Shown: piece after piece, positions 257-12,217 of the stretch
Numbering within the stretch: the first letter of the stretch is position 1
Layout of the letters: each line of letters opens with the position of its first letter
Source of the DNA: Sinorhizobium meliloti 4H41
Lineage (GTDB): Bacteria > Pseudomonadota > Alphaproteobacteria > Rhizobiales > Rhizobiaceae
Direction: 5' to 3'
Assembly (NCBI RefSeq): GCF_000375585.1
Contig: NZ_AQWP01000004.1
Coordinates: 62,001 to 126,000, forward strand
Length of the DNA: 64,000 nucleotides
Notes under the pieces: model-generated
Told to the model about the DNA's origin: nothing
The model's input: the letters and a program-made list of their open reading frames with translations, nothing else
Databases searched by the model: none
Translations under genes and position numbers: made by a program

Positions 257-633
257 TCTCCGTCTCCTGCTTTAGGCACAGTTCCGCACTAGATCACGAT
301 GAGTTAGGTCGGGTCGACCGAAAAACATGAAGGTGATCGATATCGACACCGCGCCGCCACTTATGGTAGGTTCGCGCCAACAAAAGCCATCGCATGCCAA
401 GCGACATGCCGGAAGCGACGGCGATACAACGAAATTCCGCCGAAGGCCCCAGGAAGCATAGTAGCAGAGATCACCCGGAGCTTCGTCGGAGAGCGAGTCG
501 CTGCCTTCCTGGAAACTGTGTCCGGCATGCCACGCGCGGGTCCCGGTCGGTTACAAGCCAGCCCCTACCGTTTCTCTTCTGCCCTGAGCAAAAGCCGTCT
601 GGAGAGGCGGATGCGCCCTGACCCTTGCGATTG
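257..633. other. Intergenic stretch, no convincing gene
   Basis: This gap separates the cupin and vapB starts. Open frames here are short, and none has a ribosome-binding site with recognisable protein content. One plus-strand frame across about 430-620 reads like coding sequence without a start (…EIPPKAPGSIVAEITRS…) and could be a gene remnant. I could not assign it. Confidence 0.4.
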
Positions 634-681
634 ATGTATATTCCAGCTAATATATCCGTATATTCCATGCTGGATATACAT
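634..681 (+). promoter_or_regulatory. Inverted-repeat operator before vapB
   Basis: ATGTATATTCCAGC (634-647) and GCTGGATATACAT (669-681) are reverse complements apart from one missing base. They flank an AT-rich stretch that contains further TATAT(T)CC copies. The repeat ends 12 bases before the vapB start. VapB antitoxins normally repress their own operon by binding palindromes at this position, so I read this as the autoregulatory operator overlapping the promoter. The repeat is seen; the function is inferred. Confidence 0.6.
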
Positions 682-693
682 GAGGAAACGGTC

Positions 694-939
694 ATGTCTC
701 TCTACATTCGCGACGACGATGTTGATGCCCTGGCAAAGAAGGTGCAGCAGGTCACCAAAGCCCCGACGAAGACCGAGGCGGTTAGACGCGCTCTGGAAAA
801 TGAGTTGGCGCGAGTGGAACAAGCTGTGCCGCTAAAAGAGCGAGTCGAAAAGATTCAGAACAGTGTTCGAGCCAAGATGGGACCAAACAAGCCGGAGTTC
901 GACATGAAGAAATTTACTGACGAAATGTGGGAGATCTAA
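694..939 (+). CDS. vapB: VapB-type antitoxin (Rv0623-like)
   Basis: This 81-residue protein has an N-terminal β-strand followed by helices (MSLYIRDDDVDALAKKVQQ… TKTEAVRRALENELARVE). That is the pattern of ribbon-helix-helix/PSK antitoxins that pair with PIN-domain toxins. The ATG at 694 follows an AGGAAACG ribosome-binding site. An in-frame upstream ATG at 625 would put the operator inside the gene and is rejected. The stop codon overlaps the toxin start by one base (TAATG), which indicates translational coupling. The expected role is to bind and block VapC and, with it, to repress the operon at the upstream palindrome. The C-terminal tail (FDMKKFTDEMWEI) is the likely toxin-binding segment. 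Confidence 0.85.
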   Translation: MSLYIRDDDVDALAKKVQQVTKAPTKTEAVRRALENELARVEQAVPLKERVEKIQNSVRAKMGPNKPEFDMKKFTDEMWEI

Positions 940-1376
940 TGTTCTTGGATGCGTCGGCGATCGTCGCCATCTTGGCTGGTGAAGAGGATGCAGGTTACCT
1001 TCTGGCCAAGATCGAGATGTCGGAAGGTCTTAAGATCTACTCGCCGATCTCGCTGTTCGAGGCCGTGATCAGTTTAGCCCGTATAGTCTCGATCTCGCAG
1101 TTCGGCGATCAGGTCCCTACTCCGCCCGAGTTGATCGATGAGGTGCAAGAGGATGTAGCGAAGTTCCTGGAGACGATCCGCGCGCGCGAAGTGTCCGTGA
1201 GCGGCTCGCTACACCGCAATGCAATCGAAGCGGCTCGCAACTATGGCCGTGTTGTCGGGCACCCGGCGAGGCTGAATTTTGGTGACTGCTTCTCCTATGC
1301 CTGCGCCAAGGAATATCGCCTTCCCCTTCTGTTCAAAGGCGACGATTTCTCAAAAACGGATATCGACGCTGCTTAA
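939..1376 (+). CDS. vapC: VapC-type PIN-domain ribonuclease toxin
   Basis: This 145-residue protein starts with MFLDASAIVAIL, which supplies the first PIN acidic residue (Asp4). A helix with a conserved Glu follows (SLFEAVISL). The C-terminal acidic cluster NFGDCFSYACAKE…LPLLFKGDDFSKTDI is the signature of VapC toxins, which are Mg-dependent endoribonucleases that usually cut tRNA or rRNA. All acidic residues needed for activity appear intact, so the toxin should be functional. It is coupled to vapB by a one-base overlap. An alternative in-frame start 12 bases upstream lies inside vapB and lacks a better ribosome-binding site. Such modules are typical of rhizobial plasmids, where they stabilise the replicon or a segment. 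Confidence 0.88.
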   Translation: MFLDASAIVAILAGEEDAGYLLAKIEMSEGLKIYSPISLFEAVISLARIVSISQFGDQVPTPPELIDEVQEDVAKFLETIRAREVSVSGSLHRNAIEAARNYGRVVGHPARLNFGDCFSYACAKEYRLPLLFKGDDFSKTDIDAA

Positions 1377-1701: not shown

Positions 1702-2814
1702 ATGAATGCTTTTTCGCCGCCGCCCCGCCTGCTGATGGGCCCCGGTCCGTCCAACGTCGCGCCGGAAGTGCTCGCGGCACAGGCGCGACCGACGATCGGT
1801 CATCTGGACCCCAGCTTCGTCGGATTGATGGACCGCATCAAGGACCAACTCCGCCTCGCGTTCCGAACAGATAACCGTGTGACTTTCCCCCTATCAGCCC
1901 CGGCCTCGCTCGCCATGGAGATGGCGTTGGTGACGCTGCTCGAGCCAGGCGACACCGCCATCATCGCGCAAAACGGCGTGTTCGGCGGACGCATGGCCGA
2001 AATTGCCCGGCGCGCGGGCGCGGAGGTACGGCTGGTTTCCGTCGAATGGGGCAAGCCTGTCGATCCCGAGGCGGTCCGCGCGTCGATTCTGGAGGCACCG
2101 CAGGCCAAGCTGCTCGCTTTCGTGCACGCGGAGACGTCGACCGGCGTACGGTCGGATGCGGCCGCGCTCTGCGCCCTGGCGCTCGAAGCGGGGTTGCTGT
2201 CGGTTGTGGATACCGTGACGGGCCTCGGCGGAATTCCGGTGTTGGTCGACGAATGGCAGGCGGACGCCGTCTATGCCGGCACGCAGAAATGTCTGTCCGC
2301 GCCGCCAGGCCTTGCGCCGATCACCTTTTCCGATCGCGCCGTCGCGGCAGTCAAGGCGCGCAAGGCGCCGATCCAGAGCTGGTTCCTCGATCTCGGTCTT
2401 ATGCTTGGGTACTGGGATGGGGAGGGTGCCCGCTCCTATCACCACACCGCGCCGGTGAATGCGCTTTACGGCCTGCACGAGAGCCTTACCCGCCTGCTTG
2501 GCGAAGGCTTGGAGACCGCCTGGGCGCGCCACCGCTCCGCCCATGATCGGCTGGTCGAACGGTTAGAAGGGCTGGGCGTCGGCTTCGTCGTCGACAAGGA
2601 GCACCGGCTGCCGCAGCTGAATACGGTTTGGCTCCCGGAAGGCGTGGAGGACGCGCCCGCCCGCAGACGCCTGCTTGACGAGTTCGGGATAGAGATCGGC
2701 GGAGGACTCGGGCCGCTCGCCGGCCGTATCTGGCGCATCGGACTGATGGGCGAGACTTGTCGGATCGAGAATGTCGACCGTCTGGCCGAGGCGATCGCGG
2801 CAGTTCTGCCGTAG
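1702..2814 (+). CDS. Class V PLP aminotransferase (alanine/serine/ureidoglycine-glyoxylate type)
   Basis: This 370-residue protein has the fold-type I class V layout of the glyoxylate aminotransferase group: an N-terminal MGPGPSNV substrate loop, a VDTVTGLGG motif with the PLP-contacting Asp, the Schiff-base lysine Lys196 in AGTQKCLSAPPG, a YHHTAPVNALYGL segment, and a C-terminal IGLMGE arginine/glycine region. The family transfers amino groups from alanine, serine or ureidoglycine to glyoxylate. The sequence alone does not separate these. Because the neighbouring genes look like methylpurine uptake and demethylation, (S)-ureidoglycine-glyoxylate aminotransferase, a purine-ring catabolic enzyme, is an attractive reading, but it is inference. 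The gene converges on the GST-like gene with a gap of about 77 bases. Confidence 0.85.
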   Translation: MNAFSPPPRLLMGPGPSNVAPEVLAAQARPTIGHLDPSFVGLMDRIKDQLRLAFRTDNRVTFPLSAPASLAMEMALVTLLEPGDTAIIAQNGVFGGRMAEIARRAGAEVRLVSVEWGKPVDPEAVRASILEAPQAKLLAFVHAETSTGVRSDAAALCALALEAGLLSVVDTVTGLGGIPVLVDEWQADAVYAGTQKCLSAPPGLAPITFSDRAVAAVKARKAPIQSWFLDLGLMLGYWDGEGARSYHHTAPVNALYGLHESLTRLLGEGLETAWARHRSAHDRLVERLEGLGVGFVVDKEHRLPQLNTVWLPEGVEDAPARRRLLDEFGIEIGGGLGPLAGRIWRIGLMGETCRIENVDRLAEAIAAVLP

Positions 2815-2891
2815 CCTCCTGGCCCTGAGTTCCCACTCCGCCAAGAAGAGCGCCGTAAGAGTGTCGACTGCTGTGATCCGGTCGCTTGCCC

Positions 2892-3539
2892 CTAGGCGGC
2901 ACGCGCCGGCCCGGCCGGGAACACACCCGACATGACCGTGAAGCCCTTGATCCGCTTGAGGCGATCGCACCAACGACGGATTGCCGGATAATCCTGCCGG
3001 GGAATGCCCCCCTCTTCCGAAAGCATGATGTAGGGGAAACAGGCGATATCGGCCACGGTCGGGTGCGGCGCCGAGCATATCCAGTCACGCCCTTCCTGCT
3101 CGCCGAACCAGAGATGCTCGTCGAGGATGCGAAACAGCCTGTGAGCGCCGGCCCGAGCCGCCTCGACGTCCAGATCGTAGAACAGGCCGTCATGCAGACG
3201 CGCGGCTGAAGCCGTGCCGGTGATGCCGTCCGCAAAGGCGAGCCACTGGCCGATTTCGCCGAGAAGCGCCGGATCGCTGCGGGGGTACCAGGTGCCGGAG
3301 CGATCATATTTGGAGGCGAGATAGACGAGGATCGCCTGCGCGTCGCGCAGCACCAGTCCGTCATCCTCGATCACCGGCAACTGTCCAAGCGGATTGAGCT
3401 TCAGGAACCAATCCGACTTGTGTTCGCGGCCGGGATAGAAATCGACCGGTACCGTCTTGTACTCGATGGCGAGCATGCTCATCAGAAGTCTGAGCTTGTA
3501 GCAATTGCCCGAGAGTTCGTAATCGTAGAGGGTGATCAT
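2892..3539 (-). CDS. Glutathione-S-transferase-like protein (NdmE-like)
   Basis: This 215-residue two-domain GST has an N-terminal thioredoxin fold (MITLYDYELSGNCYKLR with Ser/Cys at the active-site turn, cis-Pro in GQLPVIEDDG, then LRDAQAIL) and an all-helical C-terminal domain with the usual PTVADIACFPY capping motif. It is the third gene of a tight operon, starting 10 bases after the reductase, with an AGGAG site. In P. putida CBB5 a GST-like protein (NdmE) is a required structural partner of the NdmC oxygenase and NdmD reductase in 7-methylxanthine demethylation. The same three-gene arrangement here suggests the same role rather than ordinary detoxification. The GST call is firm; the NdmE role is inferred from context. 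Confidence 0.82.
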   Translation of the reverse strand: MITLYDYELSGNCYKLRLLMSMLAIEYKTVPVDFYPGREHKSDWFLKLNPLGQLPVIEDDGLVLRDAQAILVYLASKYDRSGTWYPRSDPALLGEIGQWLAFADGITGTASAARLHDGLFYDLDVEAARAGAHRLFRILDEHLWFGEQEGRDWICSAPHPTVADIACFPYIMLSEEGGIPRQDYPAIRRWCDRLKRIKGFTVMSGVFPAGPARAA

Positions 3540-3549
3540 CCGGCAGCTC

Positions 3550-5316
3550 CTAGAGATCGAGGACGAGGCGCGCGGATTTGGCGCGCGACACGCAGGTCAT
3601 GATCTTGGTGCCGGACCTGCGCTCGGCATCGTTGAGGTAGACGTCCTGGTGATCGGGCTCACCCTCGATCACGGTCGCAAGACAGGTGCCGCAGGCGCCC
3701 TGCTCGCAGGATGACGGCATGTCGATGCCGGCTTCGCGCATCACCTCCAGGATCGTCCTGCCGGCTGGGACCTTCAACGTCACGCAGGAGCGCGCAAGCG
3801 CTACCTCGAAGCTCGAACTGTCGTCGATCGTGTTGGTGTTCTTGAAATATTCGAAATGCACCGCCGTTTCCGGCCAGCCGCGATCCGCCGCGATCCGGCG
3901 GGCCGCCTCGAGCATTGGCCCCGGACCGCAGAGATAGAGGTGCATGCCGGGCCGATACCCGGAAAGAATGCCCTCGAGCTCGGCGGCAGTCGCGTCAGGG
4001 CGGAGTCCGAGGTGAGGCTTCAGCGCCTCGCCGAGGAGAGCGGTCTTTTCCGGAAAGGCGAGCTGTTCCTGGTTCTGGGCGAAGTAGTGGAAGGCGAAGT
4101 CCAGGTTCTGGTTCTTAAGGGCCTGTGCCATGGCAATCAGCGGCGTGACGCCGATGCCGCCGGCGACGAAAATCGTCTTCTCGGCATCGCGGCGCAGCGG
4201 GAAATTGTTGCGCGGCTCCGAAATCGCCAGGACGTCGCCCTCGCGAAGCGTCTCGTGCATGCAGAGCGAGCCGCCCTTCGAATCCCGCTCCAGCTTAACG
4301 CCGATGACGTAGCTGTCGCTTTCGCCCGGGCCATTGGTGATCGAATATTGCCGGATGAAGCCATTCGGCAAGTGAACGTCGATATGGGCGCCGGGCTGGA
4401 AAGTCGGCAGCAGGCCCTTGACCGGGCGAAGCTCGAACGCCGCGATGCCCTCGGCAGCCATCCACTTCCGCGCGACCGTTACGCGGACCGTCGCCTTGCG
4501 GCCGTGAGCGGTCAGTTCCGGCATCTCCGCAAGTTCCGGCGAGACGCGCTCGATCACCGGCTCGAGCGGCGCCGGCTGCGGTGCGGCGGCCGCCTCGCGC
4601 TCGACGATCTCACGCAGCTTCGAAAGCCGCTCGTTGTGGTGGCGCAGAACGGCGATCCGTTCGGCGCCGCGCGGCGAGCCGTCGAGTACGCCGCGGATGA
4701 CCGAACGGTTGGAGTCGACCGGCTGGACGAAGAAGACGGCCAGCGTCTCGGCGCCGTCTTCGCGGGCCGTGATCGCCACCGAGAAGCCGTCGCTCGCCTT
4801 AAGCGACATATCTGCCGCTGTGCCTTCGAGGCAGCCGTTCGGCTGAAAGCGATAGCCCGTCAGCGCCGCCACCACGACATCGGCCGGCGCATTGACCGGA
4901 ATGCCGCGAAGGGTGAGAAGATCGCCTTCGGCGAGGCCTGCGACGTCCGGCACGTCCCCTTGAGGCTCCTCCGCCGACCAGACGAGGCCATAGCGCTCGA
5001 CGCCCGCAAAGGTACGGTTGGTAATGGTGCGGGCCGGAGCGTCGGCCGGGTGTGCCGGAATATAGGTACAGCCGGCGGTGCGGTTGGAATAGCGCCAGCC
5101 GTGATACTGACACTTCAACTCGCGGCCATCGTTGATGCCGATAGAGAGGCGGACGCCGCGGTGCAGGCATCGGTTCTCCCAGATATTGACGTAGCCGTCG
5201 TCGGCACGCCAGACGGCGAACTCGCGGCCGAGCAACTGGGCGTGGAAGACGTGGCGGAACGGCAGATCATAGGACGCGGCAACGGGATGCCATCTGGTCT
5301 TGGCGGTATCGAGCAT
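3550..5316 (-). CDS. Rieske-reductase fusion (NdmD-like) feeding an oxygenase
   Basis: This 588-residue protein has four cofactor modules in one chain. Residues 1-110 are a Rieske [2Fe-2S] domain with C50-x-H52 and C69-x2-H72. From about 275 comes a phthalate-dioxygenase-reductase-like flavin domain (RQYSITNGP), then an NAD-binding domain (FVAGGIGVTPLIAM, LYLCGPGPML). The C-terminal plant-type ferredoxin has Cys537, Cys542, Cys545 and Cys575. Ordinary class IA reductases lack the Rieske domain. The extra one is the hallmark of NdmD, where it replaces the Rieske centre missing from NdmC. Its partner here, the upstream gene, indeed lacks one. Expected flow: NADH to flavin to ferredoxin to Rieske to mononuclear iron of the partner. 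The length matches my memory of NdmD. The ATG follows a GGAGAG site, and the gene starts 24 bases after the oxygenase. Confidence 0.88.
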   Translation of the reverse strand: MLDTAKTRWHPVAASYDLPFRHVFHAQLLGREFAVWRADDGYVNIWENRCLHRGVRLSIGINDGRELKCQYHGWRYSNRTAGCTYIPAHPADAPARTITNRTFAGVERYGLVWSAEEPQGDVPDVAGLAEGDLLTLRGIPVNAPADVVVAALTGYRFQPNGCLEGTAADMSLKASDGFSVAITAREDGAETLAVFFVQPVDSNRSVIRGVLDGSPRGAERIAVLRHHNERLSKLREIVEREAAAAPQPAPLEPVIERVSPELAEMPELTAHGRKATVRVTVARKWMAAEGIAAFELRPVKGLLPTFQPGAHIDVHLPNGFIRQYSITNGPGESDSYVIGVKLERDSKGGSLCMHETLREGDVLAISEPRNNFPLRRDAEKTIFVAGGIGVTPLIAMAQALKNQNLDFAFHYFAQNQEQLAFPEKTALLGEALKPHLGLRPDATAAELEGILSGYRPGMHLYLCGPGPMLEAARRIAADRGWPETAVHFEYFKNTNTIDDSSSFEVALARSCVTLKVPAGRTILEVMREAGIDMPSSCEQGACGTCLATVIEGEPDHQDVYLNDAERRSGTKIMTCVSRAKSARLVLDL

Positions 5317-5340
5317 CGTTCTCTCCAGAATTCTGAAACG

Positions 5341-6246
5341 TCAGGTGGCGGCCGGGATGACCCCGTAGGTCACGCCCTTCTGGCTGAGCCAACGGCGGTA
5401 GGCGATCGCCGACTTGTCGGCGCGGATCGGCGTCTCGGCCCGCGGGTCGAGCGGCAAACGCTTCGGAAACTGGTTCTCCAGGATCGGCTTGTCCTGGCCG
5501 AAAATCGTTTGCTGGAAGCGCTTGATCACCTTGTCTTCGTTCTCTTCGTCGAGGACACAGAGCATCATATGCGCGCGGACATGCTCCTGATCGACCGGCT
5601 GAAGGAAAACGGCAATGACGTCGAGGCGGCTTTCGTCGATGGGGCTGGATTTGTACAGCACCGAACAATAGGGATGCGGCACCCGATAGATATATTCCAC
5701 ATCGGCTCCGCCGGTGGATGCGGTCGAGGCCATCGGTTGGAAGAAGCGACAGCGCGTGGCGACGATCTCGTCGCGCTCGACCGAAAGCTCGACGTCGTAT
5801 TCCTTGACCTCCGTATGGGGTTCGGCTCCCAGAATATCGGTATGGACATAAGGAAAGTGGCCCATGTCGAGGAAGTTCTCGATAGCGCGGGGTGCCGAAA
5901 CATTGACTCCGATGGTGGCGGCATTGAGCCTGCGCCGATCGGCTTCCGCATATTCGGGAATGGGAAACAGCTCGGCGGGCGGCGTCCCCAGCGAGGTCCA
6001 GATATAGCCATAGGCAAGCTTGATCGGCAGACAGCCGCCGAGCGTACCGATATCGACCGGACTGCCGGCAGGGAGCTCCGGGCGCGAACGCCAGACGGCC
6101 GCGTTGCCCTCGCCATCCGAAACATAGCTGATGCGCTCTTCGAGCAGCACGGTTTCCTGAACCGTCCCCGCCGGCACCTCGTCCACCGCCGCCAGCGGGT
6201 GCCACAGATCGAGAACCACCTGGTCCTGGCATTTGGTCGGGCTCAT
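5341..6246 (-). CDS. Rieske-less catalytic oxygenase subunit (NdmC-like)
   Basis: This protein of about 301 residues is homologous to Rieske oxygenase α-subunits but has no CxH/CxxH cluster motif in its N-terminal region, which is only about 100 residues before the catalytic domain. The mononuclear-iron facial triad is intact: NFLDMGHFPYVH provides Asp127, His130 and His135 (numbering from the chosen start), and GQDKPILENQ carries the third Asp and the conserved Glu-x-Gln. This combination is how NdmC, the 7-methylxanthine N7-demethylase, is built. It depends on a Rieske centre in its partner reductase, encoded immediately downstream. The chosen ATG has GGAG nine bases upstream; an ATG nine bases earlier (6255) abuts that site. 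Likely reaction: oxidative removal of an N-methyl group as formaldehyde. The exact substrate is unknown. Confidence 0.82.
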   Translation of the reverse strand: MSPTKCQDQVVLDLWHPLAAVDEVPAGTVQETVLLEERISYVSDGEGNAAVWRSRPELPAGSPVDIGTLGGCLPIKLAYGYIWTSLGTPPAELFPIPEYAEADRRRLNAATIGVNVSAPRAIENFLDMGHFPYVHTDILGAEPHTEVKEYDVELSVERDEIVATRCRFFQPMASTASTGGADVEYIYRVPHPYCSVLYKSSPIDESRLDVIAVFLQPVDQEHVRAHMMLCVLDEENEDKVIKRFQQTIFGQDKPILENQFPKRLPLDPRAETPIRADKSAIAYRRWLSQKGVTYGVIPAAT

Positions 6247-6344
6247 GTCGTTCATCTCCGTGAATGGCGTCTGGTCACCAACCGTAACGGCTGTCGGAAT
6301 TCACCGGCTCGCCGCTACTGCCGCGAACCACCTGATGGCGATAG

Positions 6345-6476
6345 CTACCCACGACACTGGGCGGCGAGGTCAGCGATCAGGCGCGGGTAAAGGGGCGCGG
6401 CCGACGACGTCAGGTCCGCGTGGACATGGCAATCATTAAGAAGAACTCGATCGCTACAAAGGGCAGTTCTGCTCAT
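6345..6476 (-). CDS. Possible 43-residue small protein or gene remnant
   Basis: ATG at 6476 is preceded by a strong GGGAGGATGCG ribosome-binding site and opens a 43-codon frame (MSRTALCSDRVLLNDCHVHA…) ending 98 bases before the oxygenase start. It lies in the presumed leader of the demethylase operon and downstream of the operator pair. I do not recognise the product. It could be a real small protein, a leader peptide, or the truncated 5' end of a lost gene (NDCHVHADL faintly recalls an amidohydrolase metal motif). The ribosome-binding site is the main support. Confidence 0.35.
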   Translation of the reverse strand: MSRTALCSDRVLLNDCHVHADLTSSAAPLYPRLIADLAAQCRG

Positions 6477-6542
6477 CGCATCCTCCCTGGCTAGCACTTC
6501 CCTATGAACCTAGCTCCGTGATGGACTCATTGGAACCACAAG

Positions 6543-6619
6543 ATTGGATACCAATCAACAAAAAATTGCATGGCAAAATGCGTTTTTTGATTGACAGCTT
6601 GATTTGATTGAATACCGAT
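6543..6619. promoter_or_regulatory. Divergent promoter region with paired GntR/FCD-type operators
   Basis: ATTGGATACCAAT (6543-6555) is a perfect odd-centred palindrome. ATTGAATACCGAT (6607-6619) matches it at 11 of 13 positions, 64 bases away, about six helical turns. The motif resembles the ATTGGATCCAAT operator I recall for VanR, a GntR/FCD-family repressor. Between the copies is a long imperfect inverted repeat, CAATCAACA…(6552) to …TTTTTTGATTG (6593), and a TTGACA hexamer (6591-6596) pointing at the regulator gene. The region is AT-rich against its surroundings and separates the demethylase operon from the GntR/importer operon, so it probably controls both. The regulator at 6709 is the obvious ligand. 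Confidence 0.6.
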
Positions 6620-6670
6620 ATGGAATTCGTAACGCCGGATATGCGGCCGTGCAATGCTCCGGTGCGACCG

Positions 6671-6692
6671 TCCCGCAGATTTTTCTGCGGGA
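6671..6692 (+). promoter_or_regulatory. Perfect 9-bp hairpin in the gntR 5' leader
   Basis: TCCCGCAGA (6671-6679), a TTTT loop and TCTGCGGGA (6684-6692) form a perfect stem. It ends 16 bases before the regulator's ATG, and its 3' arm runs into the GGGAGATGGAGA ribosome-binding region. It has no downstream T-run, so a terminator is unlikely. It may affect mRNA stability or translation start. Confidence 0.45.
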
Positions 6693-6708
6693 GATGGAGA
6701 GACCTGTC

Positions 6709-7479
6709 ATGAGCAGCCGTTCGCAGGCGATTGCCGACATCCTGACCCGGGCGATCATCGATCACCGGCTCGTACCCGGATGCAAGCTCGGTGAGCGCGA
6801 ACTGGCCGAAATCTTCGAGGTCAGCCGCATCGTCATCCGCCAGGCGCTGATCAGGCTTGCCGACGACGGGCTGGCGCAGATCGAGCGCAATCGCGGCGCC
6901 TTCGTCGCACGCCCGAGCATGCAAGAAGCGATGGAGATCTACGACGCGCTGACGCTCGTGGAACAGGGCGTCGCCGCCCAGCTCTGCGACCGGCTGGGGC
7001 CGGCCGGCTTCGCCGAGTTGCGCCAGCACGTCGAGCGGCAGCGCCAGGCCGTCGCATCCGGCAACGACGCGCTTGCCGACGTTCTCGGCCAGGAATTTCA
7101 TACTCTCTTCGTCCGCCTCAGCCGTAACAAGGTCATGCAGGAAATTCACGCGCAGCTCGTGCGGCGCACCACGCTCCTGCGCTCGTTGATCTCCGCCGAT
7201 TTCGACTATTGCAATCTGCTGGACGACCACCAGCGGGTGATCGACCTGCTCGAAAAGGGCCGGCTGAAGCCTGTCATGGAGTTGATCGACACCCATCACC
7301 GCAGCGTCGTGCGCGGCTATATCATGGATCGGCAGGTCTTTCCGGAGCTGACGCCGCGGGAGGCGCTTCAGCCCTATCTCGACGGCAAAGCCGATGAGGC
7401 GTCCAAGCCGGCGCCACGCAAGAAAACGGGAGAAAGCGGGGGGGCCGTCGCGAGCCGCCACGTCCACGCCACGAAATAG
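6709..7479 (+). CDS. GntR-family regulator (FadR/FCD subfamily)
   Basis: This 256-residue protein has an N-terminal winged helix (ILTRAIIDHRLVPGCKLGERELAEIFEVSRIVIRQAL…GLAQIERNRGAFVA) and a helical FCD ligand-binding domain. The FCD metal/ligand residues are plausible in EFHTLFVRLSRN and DDHQRVIDLLEKG…HHRSV. The start at 6709 was chosen for GGAGA at the right distance; an ATG 15 bases earlier is possible. The gene lies between the demethylase operon (divergent) and the ABC importer (54 bases downstream, same strand), next to the ATTGRATACCRAT palindromes. It is probably the local repressor, released by the transported compound or a breakdown product. Regulators of this family usually act this way. 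A GntR-type regulator in caffeine-degradation loci is recalled but not verified. Confidence 0.88.
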   Translation: MSSRSQAIADILTRAIIDHRLVPGCKLGERELAEIFEVSRIVIRQALIRLADDGLAQIERNRGAFVARPSMQEAMEIYDALTLVEQGVAAQLCDRLGPAGFAELRQHVERQRQAVASGNDALADVLGQEFHTLFVRLSRNKVMQEIHAQLVRRTTLLRSLISADFDYCNLLDDHQRVIDLLEKGRLKPVMELIDTHHRSVVRGYIMDRQVFPELTPREALQPYLDGKADEASKPAPRKKTGESGGAVASRHVHATK

Positions 7480-7533
7480 ATCCGGCGGCCACAAGCCGGA
7501 GAAACGACACGAACCGACAAAGGGGTTACTGCC

Positions 7534-8628
7534 ATGTTCAACCTGACCAGACGACAATTCCTTCGATATTCCGGCGCGACCGGTGTGGCACTCGGAACCG
7601 GAAGCCTTGCCAGCTTCGCGAGCGCAGAGGAGCCGTTAAAGATCGGCGTCGTCTACGTCTCGCCGATCGCCGAGATCGGCTGGACCAAACAGCACAGCCT
7701 GGGCGTCGACGCGATCAAGAAGGAATTCGGCGACAAGGTCGCCATAACGGTCATTGACAACATCTTCATGCCCCAGGATGCCGAACGCGTGTTCCGCGAG
7801 CTCGCCGCCTCCGGAAATCAGCTGATTTTCGGGACCAGCTTCTCGCACGGCACGCCGATGCAGAAGGTGGCGCCGCGCTTCCCCAAGACGGCGTTCGAGC
7901 ACTGTTCGGGCATCGTGCACCGCGCAAACCTCGGCACCTTCGAGGCCAAATATTACGAGGGCACCTTCGTCGCCGGCGCGGCCGGCGGGCATATGAGCAA
8001 GTCCGGCAAGATCGGCTTCATCGGCGGGTTCCCGATCCCCGACATTGTCGGGCCGGCGAACGCGCTTCTTCTCGGCGCGCAGAGCGTCAATCCGGAGGTC
8101 ACCTGCAACGCCATCTTCCTCAACTCCTGGTTCGATCCGGGCAAGGAGAAGGAAGCGGCCAACACGCTCCTGTCGCAAGGCTGCGACGTCATCTGTTCGA
8201 TGACGGATACGGCAACCGGCGTACAGGTGGCCGGTGAAGGCGGCGCCTGGTCGATCGGCTACGCCAGCGACATGGCCAAGTTCGGCTCGGGCAAGCAACT
8301 CACGGCCTTTACCCTCGACTGGTCCAGTGAGTATCTGCGCGCCGCAAGGGGCGTAGCGGAAGGCAACTGGAAGGCTGAGGCGCGTTGGGACGGGCTTGCC
8401 GCCGGGGTCGTCAAGATGGCCCCCTATAATGAGGCGATCCCTGCCGACATCCAGGCCAAATTGAAGCAGCTCGAAGCCGATATCGCAGCGGGCAAGATCC
8501 ATCCCTATGCCGGCGAGCTCAAGGACCAGGACGGCAACGTCAAGGTCGCTGCCGGGTCGGTTCTTTCGGACAGCGACATCCGCGGGATGAACTGGTTCGT
8601 CAGGGGGATGATCGGCAAGCTCAGCTGA
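7534..8628 (+). CDS. BMP-family ABC transporter substrate-binding protein
   Basis: This 364-residue periplasmic binding protein has a twin-arginine signal (TRRQFLRYSGATGVALG, Arg6-Arg7) and then the mature BMP/PnrA domain, with VVYVSPIAEIGWTKQHSLG, IFGTSFSHGTPM, KIGFIGGFPIPD and CDVICSMTDTATGV motifs. BMP-family proteins with this kind of transporter typically bind nucleosides or purine-type compounds (family knowledge). It heads a four-gene importer operon and lies 54 bases after the GntR gene. With the demethylase genes divergent, a methylated purine is a reasonable ligand guess. Tat export is less common than Sec for such proteins but is recurrent in rhizobial BMP proteins. Confidence 0.9.
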   Translation: MFNLTRRQFLRYSGATGVALGTGSLASFASAEEPLKIGVVYVSPIAEIGWTKQHSLGVDAIKKEFGDKVAITVIDNIFMPQDAERVFRELAASGNQLIFGTSFSHGTPMQKVAPRFPKTAFEHCSGIVHRANLGTFEAKYYEGTFVAGAAGGHMSKSGKIGFIGGFPIPDIVGPANALLLGAQSVNPEVTCNAIFLNSWFDPGKEKEAANTLLSQGCDVICSMTDTATGVQVAGEGGAWSIGYASDMAKFGSGKQLTAFTLDWSSEYLRAARGVAEGNWKAEARWDGLAAGVVKMAPYNEAIPADIQAKLKQLEADIAAGKIHPYAGELKDQDGNVKVAAGSVLSDSDIRGMNWFVRGMIGKLS

Positions 8629-8713
8629 GCCGCGTCCTGAAATCGGCGTGACCGCGGCGAAATCCGCGTCGCGGCCACGTCGTCGCCAACGCACAACCAC
8701 GGCAGGAGCGGCC

Positions 8714-10249
8714 ATGATCCCCCGCCTCGAACTGCGCAGCATCACCAAGTGCTATCCCGGTACCGTCGCGAACGACGCCGTCTCGCTGTCGATCCTGCCG
8801 GGAGAGATACACGCCGTCCTCGGAGAGAACGGCGCCGGCAAATCGACGCTGATGAAGATCATCTATGGCGCAGCTCAAGCCGACTCGGGCGAGATCTATT
8901 GCGACGGCAGACGGATCGAGGCGCACAATCCCGCAATCTCGCGCTCGCTCGGGATCGAGATGGTCTACCAGCATTTCGCGCTCTTCGAATCCGTCTCGGT
9001 GGTCGAGAATATCGCCCTGGCGGTCAAAGGCACTTTCGATCTCGACCGGCTCGCGGCTGAGATCAAGGCCTTGTCGGCGCGCTACGGCATGCCCATCGAT
9101 CCGCACCGCAGGGTGCACGATCTCTCCGTCGGCGAGCGGCAACGCGTGGAGATCGTACGTTGCCTCCTGCAGTCACCCAAGCTTCTGATCCTGGACGAGC
9201 CGACCTCGGTGCTTACGCCGCAAGCCGTGGTGAAGCTCTTCGAAACGCTTCGCCAACTGGCAAGCGAAGGCTGCAGCATCGTCTATATCAGCCACAAGCT
9301 CGATGAAGTGCAGGAACTTTGCGACACCGCCACGGTGCTGCGCAACGGCAAGGTGACCGGCACGGCAAAACCCAAGGAATCGACGTCGCTGGAGCTCGCC
9401 CGGATGATGGTCGGCTCGCAGCTTCCGCAAATGCATGTGAGCCCTTCAGCCCCCAGCGCCAAGCCGCTGCTGGAAGTCCGCGGGCTGTCCGCTCCCGCCC
9501 GGGACAAGTACGGCACCGAGCTGACGGATGTATCCCTCGAAGTGCATGGCGGCGAGATCGTCGGACTGGCCGGTGTGTCGGGCAATGGCCAGGCTGAGTT
9601 GATCGCGCTGTTGAGCGGCGAGCGGACCCATCCGCGCGCGGAGACGATCCTCATCGGCGGGAGACCGTCCGGCCACCTCAGCGCCGGCGAACGGCGCAAG
9701 CTCGGCATGGCTTTCGTCCCGGAGGAACGCCTCGGCCGTGGCGCGGTGCCGCCCCACGCCCTGTGGGAGAACGCCGTGCTGACGGCCCACCGGGCTGGCC
9801 TCGTACGCAACGCCCTCGTCGACCGCAGGAGGGCCGGCGATTTTGCGAGGCGCGTTATCGAGCGCTTCAAGGTAAAGGCGAATGGACCGCAAGCGAGCGC
9901 GCAAAGCCTCTCCGGCGGCAACCTGCAGAAATTCATCGTCGGGCGCGAGCTCACCCTGGAGCCGAGGGTTCTTCTCGTGTCCCAGCCGACCTGGGGCGTG
10001 GATGTCGGTGCAGCCGCCTTCATCCGCCAGACGCTCGTCGATCTCAGCCGCGCCGGCGCAGCGGTGCTGGTCGTATCGGAAGAGCTCGATGAGCTGTTCG
10101 AGATCTGCGACAGGTTGCTGGTCATTTCCAACGGCCGCATTTCGCCGCCATTGATCAGAAAGCAAACCAATCGCGAAGAGATCGGCCTCTTGATGACCCG
10201 GGTCGGCCATGGCGAAACGAGGAGAACCGAAGTTGCCCTTGAGGATTGA
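8714..10249 (+). CDS. Duplicated ABC ATPase of the purine/nucleoside-type importer
   Basis: This 511-residue ATPase has two nucleotide-binding domains. The first has Walker A GENGAGKST, signature LSVGERQRVEI and Walker B LLILDEPTS. The second is degenerate at Walker A (GVSGNGQAE), with signature LSGGNLQKFIVGREL and QPTWGVDVGA, as in RbsA/YufO-type sugar and nucleoside importers. The start at 8714 has AGGAG six bases upstream. The longer frame from 8648 lacks a site and gives a low-complexity extension. The 3' end overlaps the next permease gene. It powers uptake through the two permeases downstream. Confidence 0.92.
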   Translation: MIPRLELRSITKCYPGTVANDAVSLSILPGEIHAVLGENGAGKSTLMKIIYGAAQADSGEIYCDGRRIEAHNPAISRSLGIEMVYQHFALFESVSVVENIALAVKGTFDLDRLAAEIKALSARYGMPIDPHRRVHDLSVGERQRVEIVRCLLQSPKLLILDEPTSVLTPQAVVKLFETLRQLASEGCSIVYISHKLDEVQELCDTATVLRNGKVTGTAKPKESTSLELARMMVGSQLPQMHVSPSAPSAKPLLEVRGLSAPARDKYGTELTDVSLEVHGGEIVGLAGVSGNGQAELIALLSGERTHPRAETILIGGRPSGHLSAGERRKLGMAFVPEERLGRGAVPPHALWENAVLTAHRAGLVRNALVDRRRAGDFARRVIERFKVKANGPQASAQSLSGGNLQKFIVGRELTLEPRVLLVSQPTWGVDVGAAAFIRQTLVDLSRAGAAVLVVSEELDELFEICDRLLVISNGRISPPLIRKQTNREEIGLLMTRVGHGETRRTEVALED

Positions 10250-11297
10250 ACAAAGGCAGGAGCCATCCGCGCAGATGCGGATCGCCGCTCCGGTGATCGC
10301 CACGGTGCTGACCTTCCTTGCGGGGTCCGTACTGTTTGCCGCGCTCGGCTATGATCCGCTGGCGACGCTGCACGCCTTCTTCGTCGCGCCCATCAATTCC
10401 ATCAACGGCCTTTCCGAGTGGCTGCTCAAGGCCTCGCCTCTGATTCTGATCGCCTGCGGACTGGCCGTCGGATTCCGTGCCAACATCTGGAACATCGGCG
10501 CCGAGGGGCAACTCATTGTCGGCGCTGTCGCAGCCTGTGGCGTCGGCCTCTTCTATCCCGATCCCGAGAGCCCGCTCCTCATTCCCCTGATGTTTCTCGC
10601 AGGCGCAGGCGCCGGCATGGCATGGGCAGCGATCCCGGCATTTCTCAGAGCCCGCATGAACACCAACGAGATCCTCGTCACGCTCATGCTGACCTATATC
10701 GCGACGCTGTTGCTGTCCTTTCTGGTCCACGGCCCGTGGCGCGATCCGGCCGGGTTCAACTATCCGCAAACGGCGCTCCTGCCGGCGGCGGCGATGTTCG
10801 AACCTTTCGATTATGCCTACCGGCTCAATCCGTCGATCTTCATCACGGTCGTGGCAGTCGTCATGATGTGGCTCTTCACCGATCGCAGCTTCCTCGGCTA
10901 CAAGATGTCGGTGAGCGGCGCCGCCCCCCTTGCGGCGCGCTATGCGGGCTTTCGCGAGTCCTCCGCAGTCTGGACAGGGCTGCTTGCGGGCGGCGCGGCG
11001 GCAGGCATCGCCGGTATGGCGGAAGTGGCCGGTCCGCTCGGACAATTGTCGCCCCAGATCTCGCCCGGTTACGGCTTTGCCGCCATCATCGTCGCCTTCA
11101 TCGGACGGCTGAACGCCTTCGGCATCGTGCTCGGGGGACTGCTGATGTCGCTCCTCTTCCTCGGCGGCGAGACCGTCCAGATGACCCTCGGCCTGCCGGC
11201 GGCGCTCACCCGCATCTTCCAGGGCATCCTCCTGTTCTTCCTGCTGGCCGCCGATTTCTTCATCTACTACCGTCTTCGCCTTCCGGAGCACGCCTGA
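10209..11297 (+). CDS. ABC importer permease 1 (BMP/nucleoside type)
   Basis: This protein of about 362 residues belongs to the BPD_transp_2/YufP-type permeases. It has about eight hydrophobic segments and the family's NIWNIGAEGQLIVGA and MNTNEILVTLMLTYIA motifs. Two starts are possible. ATG 10209 has no ribosome-binding site and overlaps the ATPase gene by 41 bases. TTG 10233 follows AGGAGAA with six bases spacing and is probably the true start. It ends in a TGATG overlap with the second permease. Together the two permeases form the membrane channel of the importer. Confidence 0.9.
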   Translation: MAKRGEPKLPLRIEQRQEPSAQMRIAAPVIATVLTFLAGSVLFAALGYDPLATLHAFFVAPINSINGLSEWLLKASPLILIACGLAVGFRANIWNIGAEGQLIVGAVAACGVGLFYPDPESPLLIPLMFLAGAGAGMAWAAIPAFLRARMNTNEILVTLMLTYIATLLLSFLVHGPWRDPAGFNYPQTALLPAAAMFEPFDYAYRLNPSIFITVVAVVMMWLFTDRSFLGYKMSVSGAAPLAARYAGFRESSAVWTGLLAGGAAAGIAGMAEVAGPLGQLSPQISPGYGFAAIIVAFIGRLNAFGIVLGGLLMSLLFLGGETVQMTLGLPAALTRIFQGILLFFLLAADFFIYYRLRLPEHA

Positions 11298-12217
11298 TGG
11301 ATCTTTTCATTGCCATTTTCACCGGAACCATTATCGCGGCGACGCCACTGATATTCGCAGCCCTTGGCGAGCTCGTCGTCGAGAAGTCCGGCGTGCTCAA
11401 CCTGGGCATCGAGGGCATGATGCTGATGGGGGCGGCCTTCGCCTTCTGGGCGGTGATCGCCGGCCTGCCGATGCCCGCGGCCATCGCAGCCGGCGCACTC
11501 GCCGGTGCCGCCACCTCGCTTCTCTTCGGGGTGCTGGCGCTGACCTTCCTGACCAACCAATATGCTGCCGGCCTGGCGCTCGCCATATTCGGGTCGGGGG
11601 TTTCGGCCTTTCTCGGGCGCGGTTTCGGCAGTGCGCCGATCGATGCGCTGAAGCGCGTCCATGTCCCCTTTCTCTCCGATATCCCGGTGATCGGGCCGAT
11701 GTTCTTCCGCTTCGATCCGATGGTCTATCTGGCGATCGCGATGTTCGGCCTCATCACCTGGTTCCTGTACCGCACCAAGGGCGGCCTCATCTTGCGCACC
11801 ATCGGCGAGTCGCCCGAAACGTCGCACGCGATCGGCTATCCCGTCATCAGGATCAGATATCTGGCGGTGCTGTTCGGTGGTCTGATGGCTGGCCTTGCCG
11901 GGGCATATCTCTCGGTCGCCTACACGCCGCTCTGGGTCGAAAACATGACCGCCGGCAAGGGCTGGATCTCGCTGGCACTGGTCGTCTTTGCGACATGGCG
12001 GCCGCTGCGCGTCCTGATCGGCGCCTGGCTGTTCGGCGGCATGACGATCCTGCAGCTGCAGGGACAGGCCCTCGGCATCGCGGTCCCTTCGGAGCTGCTC
12101 TCGGCGCTTCCCTATCTCGCGACTATCATAGTCCTCGTGATCATCTCGCAAAATCGCCAATTGCTGACGCTGCACTTCCCGGCGTCGCTGGCAAAGCCAT
12201 TCCGGGCGGCGAGCTAG
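11297..12217 (+). CDS. ABC importer permease 2 (BMP/nucleoside type)
   Basis: This 306-residue permease of the YufQ type has multiple transmembrane helices and the conserved VEKSGVLNLGIEGMMLMGA, TFLTNQYAAGLALAIFGSG and GKGWISLALVVFATWRP segments. The ATG overlaps the stop of permease 1 by one base, so the two are translationally coupled. A much longer frame open upstream in the same phase is out-of-frame reading of permease 1 and is not part of the protein. This is the last gene of the importer operon. Confidence 0.92.
   Translation: MDLFIAIFTGTIIAATPLIFAALGELVVEKSGVLNLGIEGMMLMGAAFAFWAVIAGLPMPAAIAAGALAGAATSLLFGVLALTFLTNQYAAGLALAIFGSGVSAFLGRGFGSAPIDALKRVHVPFLSDIPVIGPMFFRFDPMVYLAIAMFGLITWFLYRTKGGLILRTIGESPETSHAIGYPVIRIRYLAVLFGGLMAGLAGAYLSVAYTPLWVENMTAGKGWISLALVVFATWRPLRVLIGAWLFGGMTILQLQGQALGIAVPSELLSALPYLATIIVLVIISQNRQLLTLHFPASLAKPFRAAS

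What the first reader, a model, noticed from the sequence alone, without database searches (positions are those of the whole stretch)
2892..6246. NdmC/NdmD/NdmE-like split Rieske N-demethylase in a rhizobial genome
Three adjacent genes show the very unusual division of labour known from 7-methylxanthine N7-demethylase of P. putida CBB5. The oxygenase subunit has an intact iron triad but no Rieske motif. The reductase carries an added N-terminal Rieske domain (C50/H52/C69/H72) ahead of flavin, NAD and ferredoxin domains. A GST-like protein is encoded in the same operon. The motifs are seen directly; the match of three separate peculiarities makes chance unlikely. The substrate in this organism is unknown and need not be a caffeine breakdown product; N7-methylated purines from nucleic-acid turnover or plant alkaloids are candidates.
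Basis: partly seen in the sequence, partly recalled or inferred. Interest (0 to 1): 0.85.

Follow-up and report, generated by a model that had tools for sequence, protein, structure and literature searches.

The report
Split oxygenase for methylated purines
Three neighbouring genes in a soil symbiont encode an oxygen-using enzyme whose two metal centres sit on two different, complementarily crippled proteins held with a glutathione-transferase-like partner; relatives suggest it strips methyl groups from purine bases such as methylated guanine, but that is untested.

Summary
In detail: oxygenase 5341-6255(-) without a Rieske motif but with an intact iron triad, reductase 3550-5316(-) with an added Rieske domain, GST-like gene 2892-3539(-). 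The resemblance to NdmC/NdmD/NdmE is real (49, 36, 66% identity; these genes are their best matches in the window's genome), and ndmCDE homologues in Sinorhizobium and Mesorhizobium are already in print (review, 2015), function unknown. New here: (1) the oxygenase belongs to a paralogous subfamily; NdmC groups with a second Rieske-less oxygenase present in 49 of 80 relatives, of which the window keeps a broken stub. (2) Predicted folds suggest that both proteins are whole Rieske-oxygenase alpha subunits that decayed in complementary ways. (3) In relatives a formaldehyde dehydrogenase gene lies right behind the GST gene in 24 of 76 loci, guanine deaminase within one gene in 4, once a whole guanine-xanthine operon; the neighbouring transporter's binding protein resembles guanine-binding AtzT. 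Best explanation: oxidative N-demethylation of a methylated purine base, methylguanine the best guess. Main doubt: the formaldehyde gene occurs only where the second oxygenase is present (20 of 39 against 0 of 27). New variant of a known kind.

The parts
5341..6255 (-). Catalytic oxygenase subunit, NdmC-like, 304 aa: iron triad H133/H138/D255, no Rieske ligands, remnant of the Rieske domain at about residues 11-90
3550..5316 (-). NdmD-like protein, 588 aa: Rieske domain (C50/H52/C69/H72), probable shrunken catalytic-domain remnant without triad (about 130-245), then PDR-type flavin, NAD and plant-type ferredoxin domains
2892..3539 (-). NdmE-like GST-fold protein, 215 aa, 66% identical to NdmE of pTmex-577K
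6203..6476 (-). Broken stub of the second NdmC-like oxygenase (ox1) that is intact in S. meliloti 1021; about 670 nt of that gene are absent here and the rest is out of frame (its end overlaps the start of the oxygenase gene)
6709..7479 (+). GntR/FCD regulator, divergent; likely regulator (inference)
   Evidence: a homologue within 8 kb of the oxygenase in 44 of 80 loci
7534..8628 (+). PnrA/BMP-type substrate-binding protein; closest solved structures AtzT (guanine bound, 321 bits) and 3s99 (purine modelled, 301 bits)
8648..10249 (+). ABC transporter ATPase (first start codon of the frame; the start annotated in LMB1 corresponds to 8714)
10209..11297 (+). ABC permease 1 (start annotated in LMB1 corresponds to 10233)
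11297..12217 (+). ABC permease 2 (length as annotated in LMB1)
1702..2814 (+). Class V aminotransferase, convergent with the trio; found near the trio in three S. meliloti loci (L090, L091, L096) but in none of the 80 genome-contig loci, so probably not part of the system

Best explanation
A three-part Rieske monooxygenase that oxidatively removes an N-methyl group from a purine base, most likely a methylated guanine such as 7-methylguanine, releasing formaldehyde and a plain purine for the guanine deaminase / xanthine dehydrogenase route. Electrons would run NADH -> flavin -> plant-type [2Fe-2S] -> added Rieske [2Fe-2S] (all on the 588-aa protein) -> mononuclear iron of the 304-aa oxygenase. 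Both proteins look like whole alpha subunits decayed in complementary ways: the oxygenase kept the iron site and lost the cluster-binding part of its Rieske domain, the other kept the Rieske cluster and lost the iron site. The normal head-to-tail Rieske-to-iron contact would thus be made between two different proteins, with the GST-like protein as scaffold. Shown: domains, motifs, kinship, neighbours. Inferred: complex, decay history, electron path, chemistry. Guessed: the substrate.
For: Division of labour as in NdmCDE, for which 7-methylxanthine N7-demethylation is reported (PMC4408171 passages). The oxygenase model matches complete SxtT/GxtA chains (TM by target 0.72-0.76 over 326-335 columns). 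The 588-aa model, besides PDR, also matches SxtT/GxtA chains (TM by target 0.56-0.61 over 270-307 columns, gaps included; a Rieske domain of about 120 residues alone could hardly give that). A profile of its first 262 residues aligns to Rieske-bearing oxygenases up to position 257 of 302, with both triad histidines in gaps. The stretch spanning the Rieske ligands, with 8 alignment columns either side, holds 8-14 residues in 144 Rieske-less proteins and 38-42 in 9 with the motif. S-(hydroxymethyl)glutathione dehydrogenase lies within 400 nt behind the GST gene in 24 of 76 loci (20 of 66 with at least 700 nt of room); S-formylglutathione hydrolase follows in 8 of 17 with room. The ndm cluster itself carries both genes. 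Guanine deaminase lies within one gene of the trio in 4 of 76 loci: L018, L050, L053 and L064. In L064 the trio ends a same-strand run of xanthine permease/OHCU decarboxylase, xdhA, xdhB, xdhC and guanine deaminase. L053 has ox1, the trio, the formaldehyde dehydrogenase, guanine deaminase and an oxygenase 38% identical to NdmB together. The transporter's binding protein resembles AtzT, which held guanine with KD about 110 nM (PMC6834077 passages); the aromatic walls (Tyr45 is Trp) and the Ser97 and Phe98 positions are kept, and the pocket is uniform in 49-50 of 50 close copies. The own genome has two guanine deaminases and two xdhA over cut-off.
Against: The formaldehyde genes adjoin only loci that also carry ox1 (dehydrogenase: 20 of 39) and none of 27 without it, and the window has lost ox1; so demethylation is best supported for ox1-bearing clusters. 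The window's oxygenase is not the NdmC orthologue. Guanine deaminase adjoins only 4 of 76 loci; loci are related, so counts are not independent. Of 21 loci in the Devosia branch none has the formaldehyde gene and only 2 have a (distant) binding protein within 8 kb. The remnant part of the 588-aa protein is weak by sequence alone (25 columns, probability 42, and 1.3 against motif-bearing oxygenases); for the gamma-proteobacterial NdmD the profile match to oxygenases stopped after the Rieske domain. The binding-protein pocket differs from AtzT at Glu165 (Asp), Asn169 (Pro), Asn218 (Met) and Asn220 (Asp).
Confidence: 0.55

Rival explanations
1. A molybdenum-free purine hydroxylase: like HpxD it adds oxygen to an unmethylated purine ring (for example guanine to 8-oxoguanine), and a neighbouring deaminase completes the step to urate.
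For: HpxDE-type Rieske enzymes oxidise hypoxanthine and xanthine (PMC7373994 passages). In the Rhizobium split type the neighbouring amidohydrolase is closest to 8-oxoguanine deaminase (371.6 bits, under the cut-off of 532). Loci without ox1, like the window, have no formaldehyde gene behind the GST gene (0 of 27).
Against: The oxygenases lie outside the three HpxD-type rows. The specificity pair is Gln/Phe as in NdmC (83 of 83), Asn/Phe in the three HpxD-type rows (NdmA has Asn/Phe too). L064 and the own genome already have xanthine dehydrogenase.
Confidence: 0.2
2. An N-demethylase for plant methylxanthines or other N-methyl alkaloids taken from the rhizosphere, doing in rhizobia what NdmCDE does in caffeine degraders.
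For: Kinship with NdmCDE; often plasmid-borne in plant symbionts; same Gln/Phe pair as NdmC. Six of the 80 loci carry a full Rieske-bearing oxygenase related to NdmA/NdmB in their flanks: L053 (38% to NdmB) and L010, L023, L041, L062, L076 (29-31% to NdmA).
Against: 74 of the 80 loci show no such full NdmA/NdmB-like oxygenase in the DNA held, and five of the six are distant; the oxygenase is not the NdmC orthologue; guanine deaminase and an AtzT-like binding protein are the purine-related neighbours seen, though L064 also has a xanthine permease.
Confidence: 0.15
3. A leftover that no longer has a function in the window strain after loss of ox1.
For: ox1 is a broken stub here, and the conspecific LMB1 has the same arrangement (97% identical DNA over the stretch).
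Against: All three genes are open with every metal ligand kept; 27 of the 66 loci with room behind the GST gene also lack ox1 directly upstream and keep the trio.
Confidence: 0.05

Closest known systems
NdmC/NdmD/NdmE, 7-methylxanthine N7-demethylase of Pseudomonas putida CBB5 (here read from the related ndm cluster on pTmex-577K)
   Same: Gene order, Rieske-less oxygenase with triad, reductase with added Rieske domain, GST-like partner; Gln/Phe at the two positions that set N1/N3 specificity in NdmA/NdmB
   Different: Oxygenase is a paralogous subfamily, not the orthologue; no NdmA/NdmB gene beside it in the window; divergent nucleobase-type ABC transporter instead of a purine symporter; NdmD counterpart only 36% identical
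ndmCDE homologues of Sinorhizobium/Mesorhizobium mentioned in Summers et al. 2015 (PMC4408171)
   Same: Very probably the same genes; the S. meliloti pSymA copy is 94% identical (oxygenase)
   Different: Only listed there as homologues of unknown function in the passages seen; no paralogue, neighbourhood or fold analysis in those passages
HpxD/HpxE, molybdenum-free (hypo)xanthine hydroxylase
   Same: Rieske oxygenase with a separate reductase in purine breakdown
   Different: HpxD has its own Rieske domain; separate branch in the tree; no GST gene beside it in the two records seen
SxtT/GxtA Rieske hydroxylases (closest solved structures)
   Same: Fold of the oxygenase and, by Foldseek, of the front half of the 588-aa protein
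   Different: One protein carries both metal centres; different substrate; 20-23% identity
AtzT, periplasmic purine-binding protein
   Same: The transporter's binding protein is its closest match in the PDB by sequence (321 bits)
   Different: Glu165, Asn169, Asn218 and Asn220 are Asp, Pro, Met and Asp; Tyr45 is Trp

Membership tests
NdmCDE-type split Rieske N-demethylase | Oxygenase without Rieske cluster but with mononuclear iron triad | tested here: met
   (sequence only)
NdmCDE-type split Rieske N-demethylase | Reductase with an extra N-terminal Rieske domain ahead of flavin, NAD and plant-type ferredoxin domains | tested here: met
NdmCDE-type split Rieske N-demethylase | NdmE-like GST in the same gene run | tested here: met
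   66% to NdmE; own-genome best match 65%, next GST 40%; trio complete in 76 of 80 loci
NdmCDE-type split Rieske N-demethylase | Oxygenase in the clade of NdmC, apart from NdmA, NdmB and HpxD | tested here: met
   support 100, 100/99
NdmC orthologues | Groups with NdmC more closely than the other Rieske-less subfamilies do | tested here: not met
   NdmC groups with ox1, the third type and the Rhizobium split type at 98/99, apart from the window's group; unresolved in the quick tree; the root inside the clade is uncertain because the outgroup branch is long
NdmCDE-type split Rieske N-demethylase | Formaldehyde-handling genes in the cluster | tested here: inconclusive
   none of the window genes 1702-12217 is one; dehydrogenase behind the GST gene in 24 of 76 relatives, only together with ox1
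NdmCDE-type split Rieske N-demethylase | Stable three-protein complex and N7-demethylation of 7-methylxanthine | not testable with these tools
   no multimer prediction or assay available
HpxDE xanthine hydroxylase | Oxygenase with its own Rieske cluster | tested here: not met
PDR-type reductases | Flavin - NAD - plant-type ferredoxin order with PDR sequence similarity | tested here: met
   2pia, 233.8 bits over residues 277-588; Foldseek rank 1
AtzT-like purine-binding proteins | Aromatic sandwich and Ser/Phe carbonyl contact of the guanine site | tested here: met
   W50, S102, F103, W199 at the Tyr45, Ser97, Phe98, Trp194 positions; Trp for Tyr45 keeps the aromatic ring
AtzT-like purine-binding proteins | Glu165, Asn218, Asn220 contacts to guanine | tested here: not met
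   Asp, Met, Asp in the window and in 49-50 of 50 close copies, window included

The most novel reading that the evidence does not exclude
A widespread bacterial route that takes up methylated guanine bases from RNA turnover and erases the methyl group oxidatively, run by a Rieske oxygenase built from two complementarily decayed alpha subunits, one of them welded to the reductase, in which several Rieske-less oxygenases of different methyl-position specificity share one Rieske-reductase and one GST scaffold.
Probability: 0.33. Interest if true: 0.78.

Novelty: new variant of a known kind. Interest (0 to 1): 0.55.

Why it matters
How bacteria recycle methylated purine bases from RNA and DNA turnover is, as far as I know, poorly mapped. 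If the reading holds, S. meliloti 1021, a genetically tractable strain with a 94% identical oxygenase and an intact second one, would make such a route testable with simple deletions. The complementary decay of two whole alpha subunits would explain how an oxygenase can work without its own Rieske cluster and turns the NdmCDE complex, called unsolved in a 2026 paper (PMC13237722 passages), into a concrete structural prediction. It also shows that the family, which the papers listed here discuss in connection with caffeine, is wider: 63 of 397 sampled genomes of the order carry a relative at E <= 1e-60.

Tried and rejected
Rfam search of the window, to look for a purine riboswitch: no match at gathering scores. 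Truncated ordinary Rieske gene: rejected. The class V aminotransferase 1702-2814 as a pathway enzyme: near the trio only in three S. meliloti loci, no NCBIfam model over its cut-off. The long plus-strand frame 3856-6390 (844 aa) runs antisense to the trio and was treated as chance, not tested further. First automatic gene calls were confused by antisense frames and replaced by codon-composition calls, which still put some NdmD-like genes on the wrong strand; counts therefore rest on homology placement. NdmE as a glutathione enzyme that traps formaldehyde: Ser10 and Cys13 are invariant in 84 copies, but an actinobacterium (L064), a group that by general knowledge uses mycothiol instead of glutathione, keeps the protein, so a scaffold role is preferred. 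Literature: ten searches. Among the papers listed I saw none on 7-methylguanine demethylation by these enzymes or on a catalytic remnant in NdmD; but several listings were cut (15 of 320, 8 of 300, 20 of 51, 10 of 18), most subscription papers are not held, and the primary NdmCDE paper (PMC3754594) and the NdmCDE promiscuity paper are not held, so either may be described elsewhere. Of the papers cited I saw passages only.

Rows dropped: of 150 oxygenase hits the 153-row tree left out 3 short fragments and the near-duplicate L091, and added the window and 6 outgroup rows; the 61-row tree is a hand-picked subset without four long rows (L099, L100, L101, L104). The genome-contig scan kept the best 80 of 312 confirmed relatives, so distant types are under-represented. 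The structure alignments held 51 and 65 chosen sequences.

Full report
OBSERVATION. The window carries, on the minus strand, a GST-like gene (2892-3539), a 588-aa Rieske-reductase (3550-5316) and a 304-aa oxygenase (5341-6255). The reductase has a Rieske domain at residues 9-90 with C50, H52, C69, H72, and from 277 to its end matches phthalate dioxygenase reductase. The oxygenase matches only the catalytic-domain families VanA_C and KshA_C; its triad H133, H138, D255 is invariant among 65 aligned.

IS IT NDMCDE-LIKE? A true ndm cluster was found on P. putida plasmid pTmex-577K (L092): two of its oxygenases match the solved NdmA and NdmB at 765 and 785 bits and its reductase matches the NdmD ferredoxin fragment at 164 bits over 87 residues. 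Against it the window proteins show 48.6% (NdmC, 290 columns), 36.3% (NdmD, 593 columns) and 66.0% (NdmE, 212 columns) identity. The three ndm proteins hit exactly these genes first in the window's genome (51, 37, 65%); the reverse search over a whole ndm-bearing genome was not made. A review already states that ndmCDE homologues of unknown function occur mainly in Sinorhizobium and Mesorhizobium (PMC4408171, passages). The resemblance itself is thus not new.

SUBFAMILIES. Of 80 loci kept from 312 confirmed relatives, 78 have the Rieske-reductase next door, 76 the GST-like gene, and 49 a second Rieske-less oxygenase (ox1, 43-56% identical to the window's) directly upstream. In a 153-row tree the 144 Rieske-less oxygenases form one clade (support 100), apart from 9 rows with the Rieske motif. 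In a careful 61-row tree NdmC groups with ox1, a third type and the Rhizobium split type (98/99), while the window's oxygenase lies outside that group; the quick tree left this unresolved. I take it as a paralogue, not an orthologue, of NdmC. At the two positions changed in the NdmA 'QL' mutant (seen by comparing the PDB chains; a passage in PMC8055839, says two mutations switch N1 to N3 specificity) the window's group has Gln/Phe in 83 of 83, NdmC Gln/Phe in 3 of 3, the split type Gln/Phe in 4 of 4, ox1 Met/Phe in 48 of 49 at each position, the third type His/Leu in 5 of 5. Some subfamilies thus differ where specificity is set, and the window's group agrees with NdmC.

WHAT THE WINDOW HAS LOST. 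In S. meliloti 1021 the second oxygenase is intact (L090). The window, and its conspecific LMB1 (97% identical over the stretch), lack about 670 nt of it; the window keeps an out-of-frame stub at 6203-6476. The strain is a natural single-oxygenase version. In the genus, 4 of 33 genomes carry the window's type and 9 others a 44-49% identical relative; in a sample of the order, 63 of 397 carry some relative at E <= 1e-60. The gene is accessory, and 269 plasmid records hold a match at E <= 1e-5.

FOLD. The oxygenase model (mean pLDDT 85.9) aligns with SxtT/GxtA chains, TM by target 0.72-0.76 over 326-335 columns. Its residues 11-90 are confidently folded: a Rieske domain from which the cluster-binding part is cut out (8-14 residues where Rieske-bearing relatives have 38-42, counted with 8 columns either side). 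The 588-aa model (82.8) aligns, besides PDR, with SxtT/GxtA chains, TM by target 0.56-0.61 over 270-307 columns, gaps included; a Rieske domain of about 120 residues alone could hardly reach that. Residues 133-244 form strands and a long helix, and a profile alignment carries on to position 257 of 302 of Rieske-bearing oxygenases with both triad histidines in gaps. By sequence alone this middle part is weak (25 columns, probability 42 against the Rieske-less set, 1.3 against the Rieske-bearing set). For the gamma-proteobacterial NdmD the profile match to oxygenases stops after the Rieske domain, although NdmD and the window protein match each other over 232 columns. My reading, an inference: two whole alpha subunits that decayed in complementary ways, so that one supplies the Rieske cluster and the other the iron. 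In Rhizobium johnstonii, R. phaseoli and Shinella the Rieske part is a free 213-216 aa protein with no fused reductase, a third arrangement of the same parts.

CHEMISTRY AND SUBSTRATE. S-(hydroxymethyl)glutathione dehydrogenase (over the curated cut-off for the one representative scanned; 59-68% identical to that of the ndm cluster) lies within 400 nt behind the GST gene in 24 of 76 loci, 20 of the 66 with at least 700 nt of room, followed by S-formylglutathione hydrolase in 8 of 17 with room; two more loci (L017, L072) have the hydrolase without the dehydrogenase directly behind the GST gene. These are enzymes that clear formaldehyde, the by-product of demethylation. Guanine deaminase lies within one gene of the trio in 4 of 76 loci: directly behind it in L018 and L050, behind the formaldehyde dehydrogenase in L053, upstream in L064. 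In Nocardioides L064 the trio (67.9, 60.6 and 59.3% identical) closes a same-strand run of xanthine permease/OHCU decarboxylase, xdhA (429 bits, under the cut-off of 467), xdhB and xdhC (over), and guanine deaminase (NF006679 over its cut-off, TIGR02967 374.5 against 375.4). L053 also has an oxygenase 38% identical to NdmB; five other loci have full Rieske oxygenases 29-31% identical to NdmA. A close copy (55% or more) of the transporter's binding protein lies within 8 kb in 45 of 80 loci, a distant one in 9. It is closest to AtzT, which retained guanine through purification (KD about 110 nM; PMC6834077, passages). Both aromatic walls and the Ser/Phe contact are kept, while Glu165, Asn169, Asn218 and Asn220 are Asp, Pro, Met, Asp in 49-50 of 50 close copies. 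The window's genome has two guanine deaminases and two xdhA genes over cut-off. Together this points to a methylated purine base, a methylguanine above all; 7-methyl is preferred because NdmC is an N7 enzyme with the same specificity pair. This last step is a guess.

EVIDENCE AGAINST. The formaldehyde dehydrogenase adjoins only clusters with ox1 (20 of 39 with room) and none of 27 without it, and the window lost ox1. The window's oxygenase could therefore do different chemistry, for example hydroxylate guanine; the Rhizobium split type has a neighbour closest to 8-oxoguanine deaminase, under cut-off. Of 21 loci in the Devosia branch none has the formaldehyde gene and only 2 a distant binding protein nearby. 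Loci share ancestry, so counts are not independent events.

ROLE OF THE GST-LIKE PROTEIN. It is the most similar of the three to its ndm counterpart. Ser10, Cys13 and Pro55 are invariant in 84 copies, so thiol binding is possible, but its presence in an actinobacterium, a group generally lacking glutathione (general knowledge), favours the scaffold role proposed for NdmE.

VERDICT. Observation confirmed; interpretation partly supported. A new variant of a known kind: a paralogous subfamily of the NdmCDE-type split Rieske oxygenases, in a guanine-centred context, with a testable structural explanation of the split.

Noticed in passing
window 6203-6476 (-): Out-of-frame stub of a second Rieske-less oxygenase that is intact in S. 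meliloti 1021; LMB1 lacks the same stretch.
   Followed up: partly
L095:7922-10493, L102:7922-10490, L103:7959-10523: Rhizobium/Shinella plasmids carry a free-standing Rieske protein (213-216 aa), an NdmC-like oxygenase, a GST, an amidohydrolase (closest to 8-oxoguanine deaminase in L095, the one scanned) and a BMP-type transporter, preceded by a small gene annotated acylphosphatase or hypothetical; no fused reductase.
   Followed up: partly
L064:762-12254: Nocardioides immobilis: xanthine permease/OHCU decarboxylase fusion, xdhABC-type genes, guanine deaminase and the NdmCDE-like trio in one same-strand run.
   Followed up: yes
L056:9969-11091: Pseudonocardia dioxanivorans: the Rieske plus remnant part is not followed by a detectable reductase; an overlapping frame holds part of an OHCU decarboxylase; no GST found.
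   Followed up: partly
L053:2550-13190: ox1, the trio, formaldehyde dehydrogenase, guanine deaminase and an oxygenase 38% identical to NdmB lie together: the fullest cluster seen.
   Followed up: partly
L044:1955-2848 and equivalents in L045, L047-L049: A third Rieske-less oxygenase type with its own BMP-type transporter, an AraC-type regulator and a serine hydroxymethyltransferase reading, upstream of the main cluster.
   Followed up: no
L085:9952-11693: Rieske-reductase split by a frame change after residue 81 (Paenalcaligenes); real or assembly error unknown.
   Followed up: no
window 625-1376 (+): VapBC-type toxin-antitoxin pair beside the aminotransferase gene (named from the annotation of the corresponding genes in LMB1).
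   Followed up: no
own genome G000: C9, C10, C3, C31: Class III alcohol (formaldehyde) dehydrogenase matches are partial (two N-terminal and two C-terminal pieces), which suggests copies broken at contig ends; the genome's own formaldehyde route could not be read in one piece.
   Followed up: no
S. meliloti 1021 SMa1505 (GntR) and SMa1507: SMa1505 is listed among GntR factors found only in a bacteroid network (PMC11387232 passages) and SMa1507 in a Clr transcriptome table with negative values and as a proteome spot seen at pH 7.0 only (PMC5498481, PMC4941405 passages); that these tags are the regulator and binding protein of this locus is inferred from names and families.
   Followed up: no
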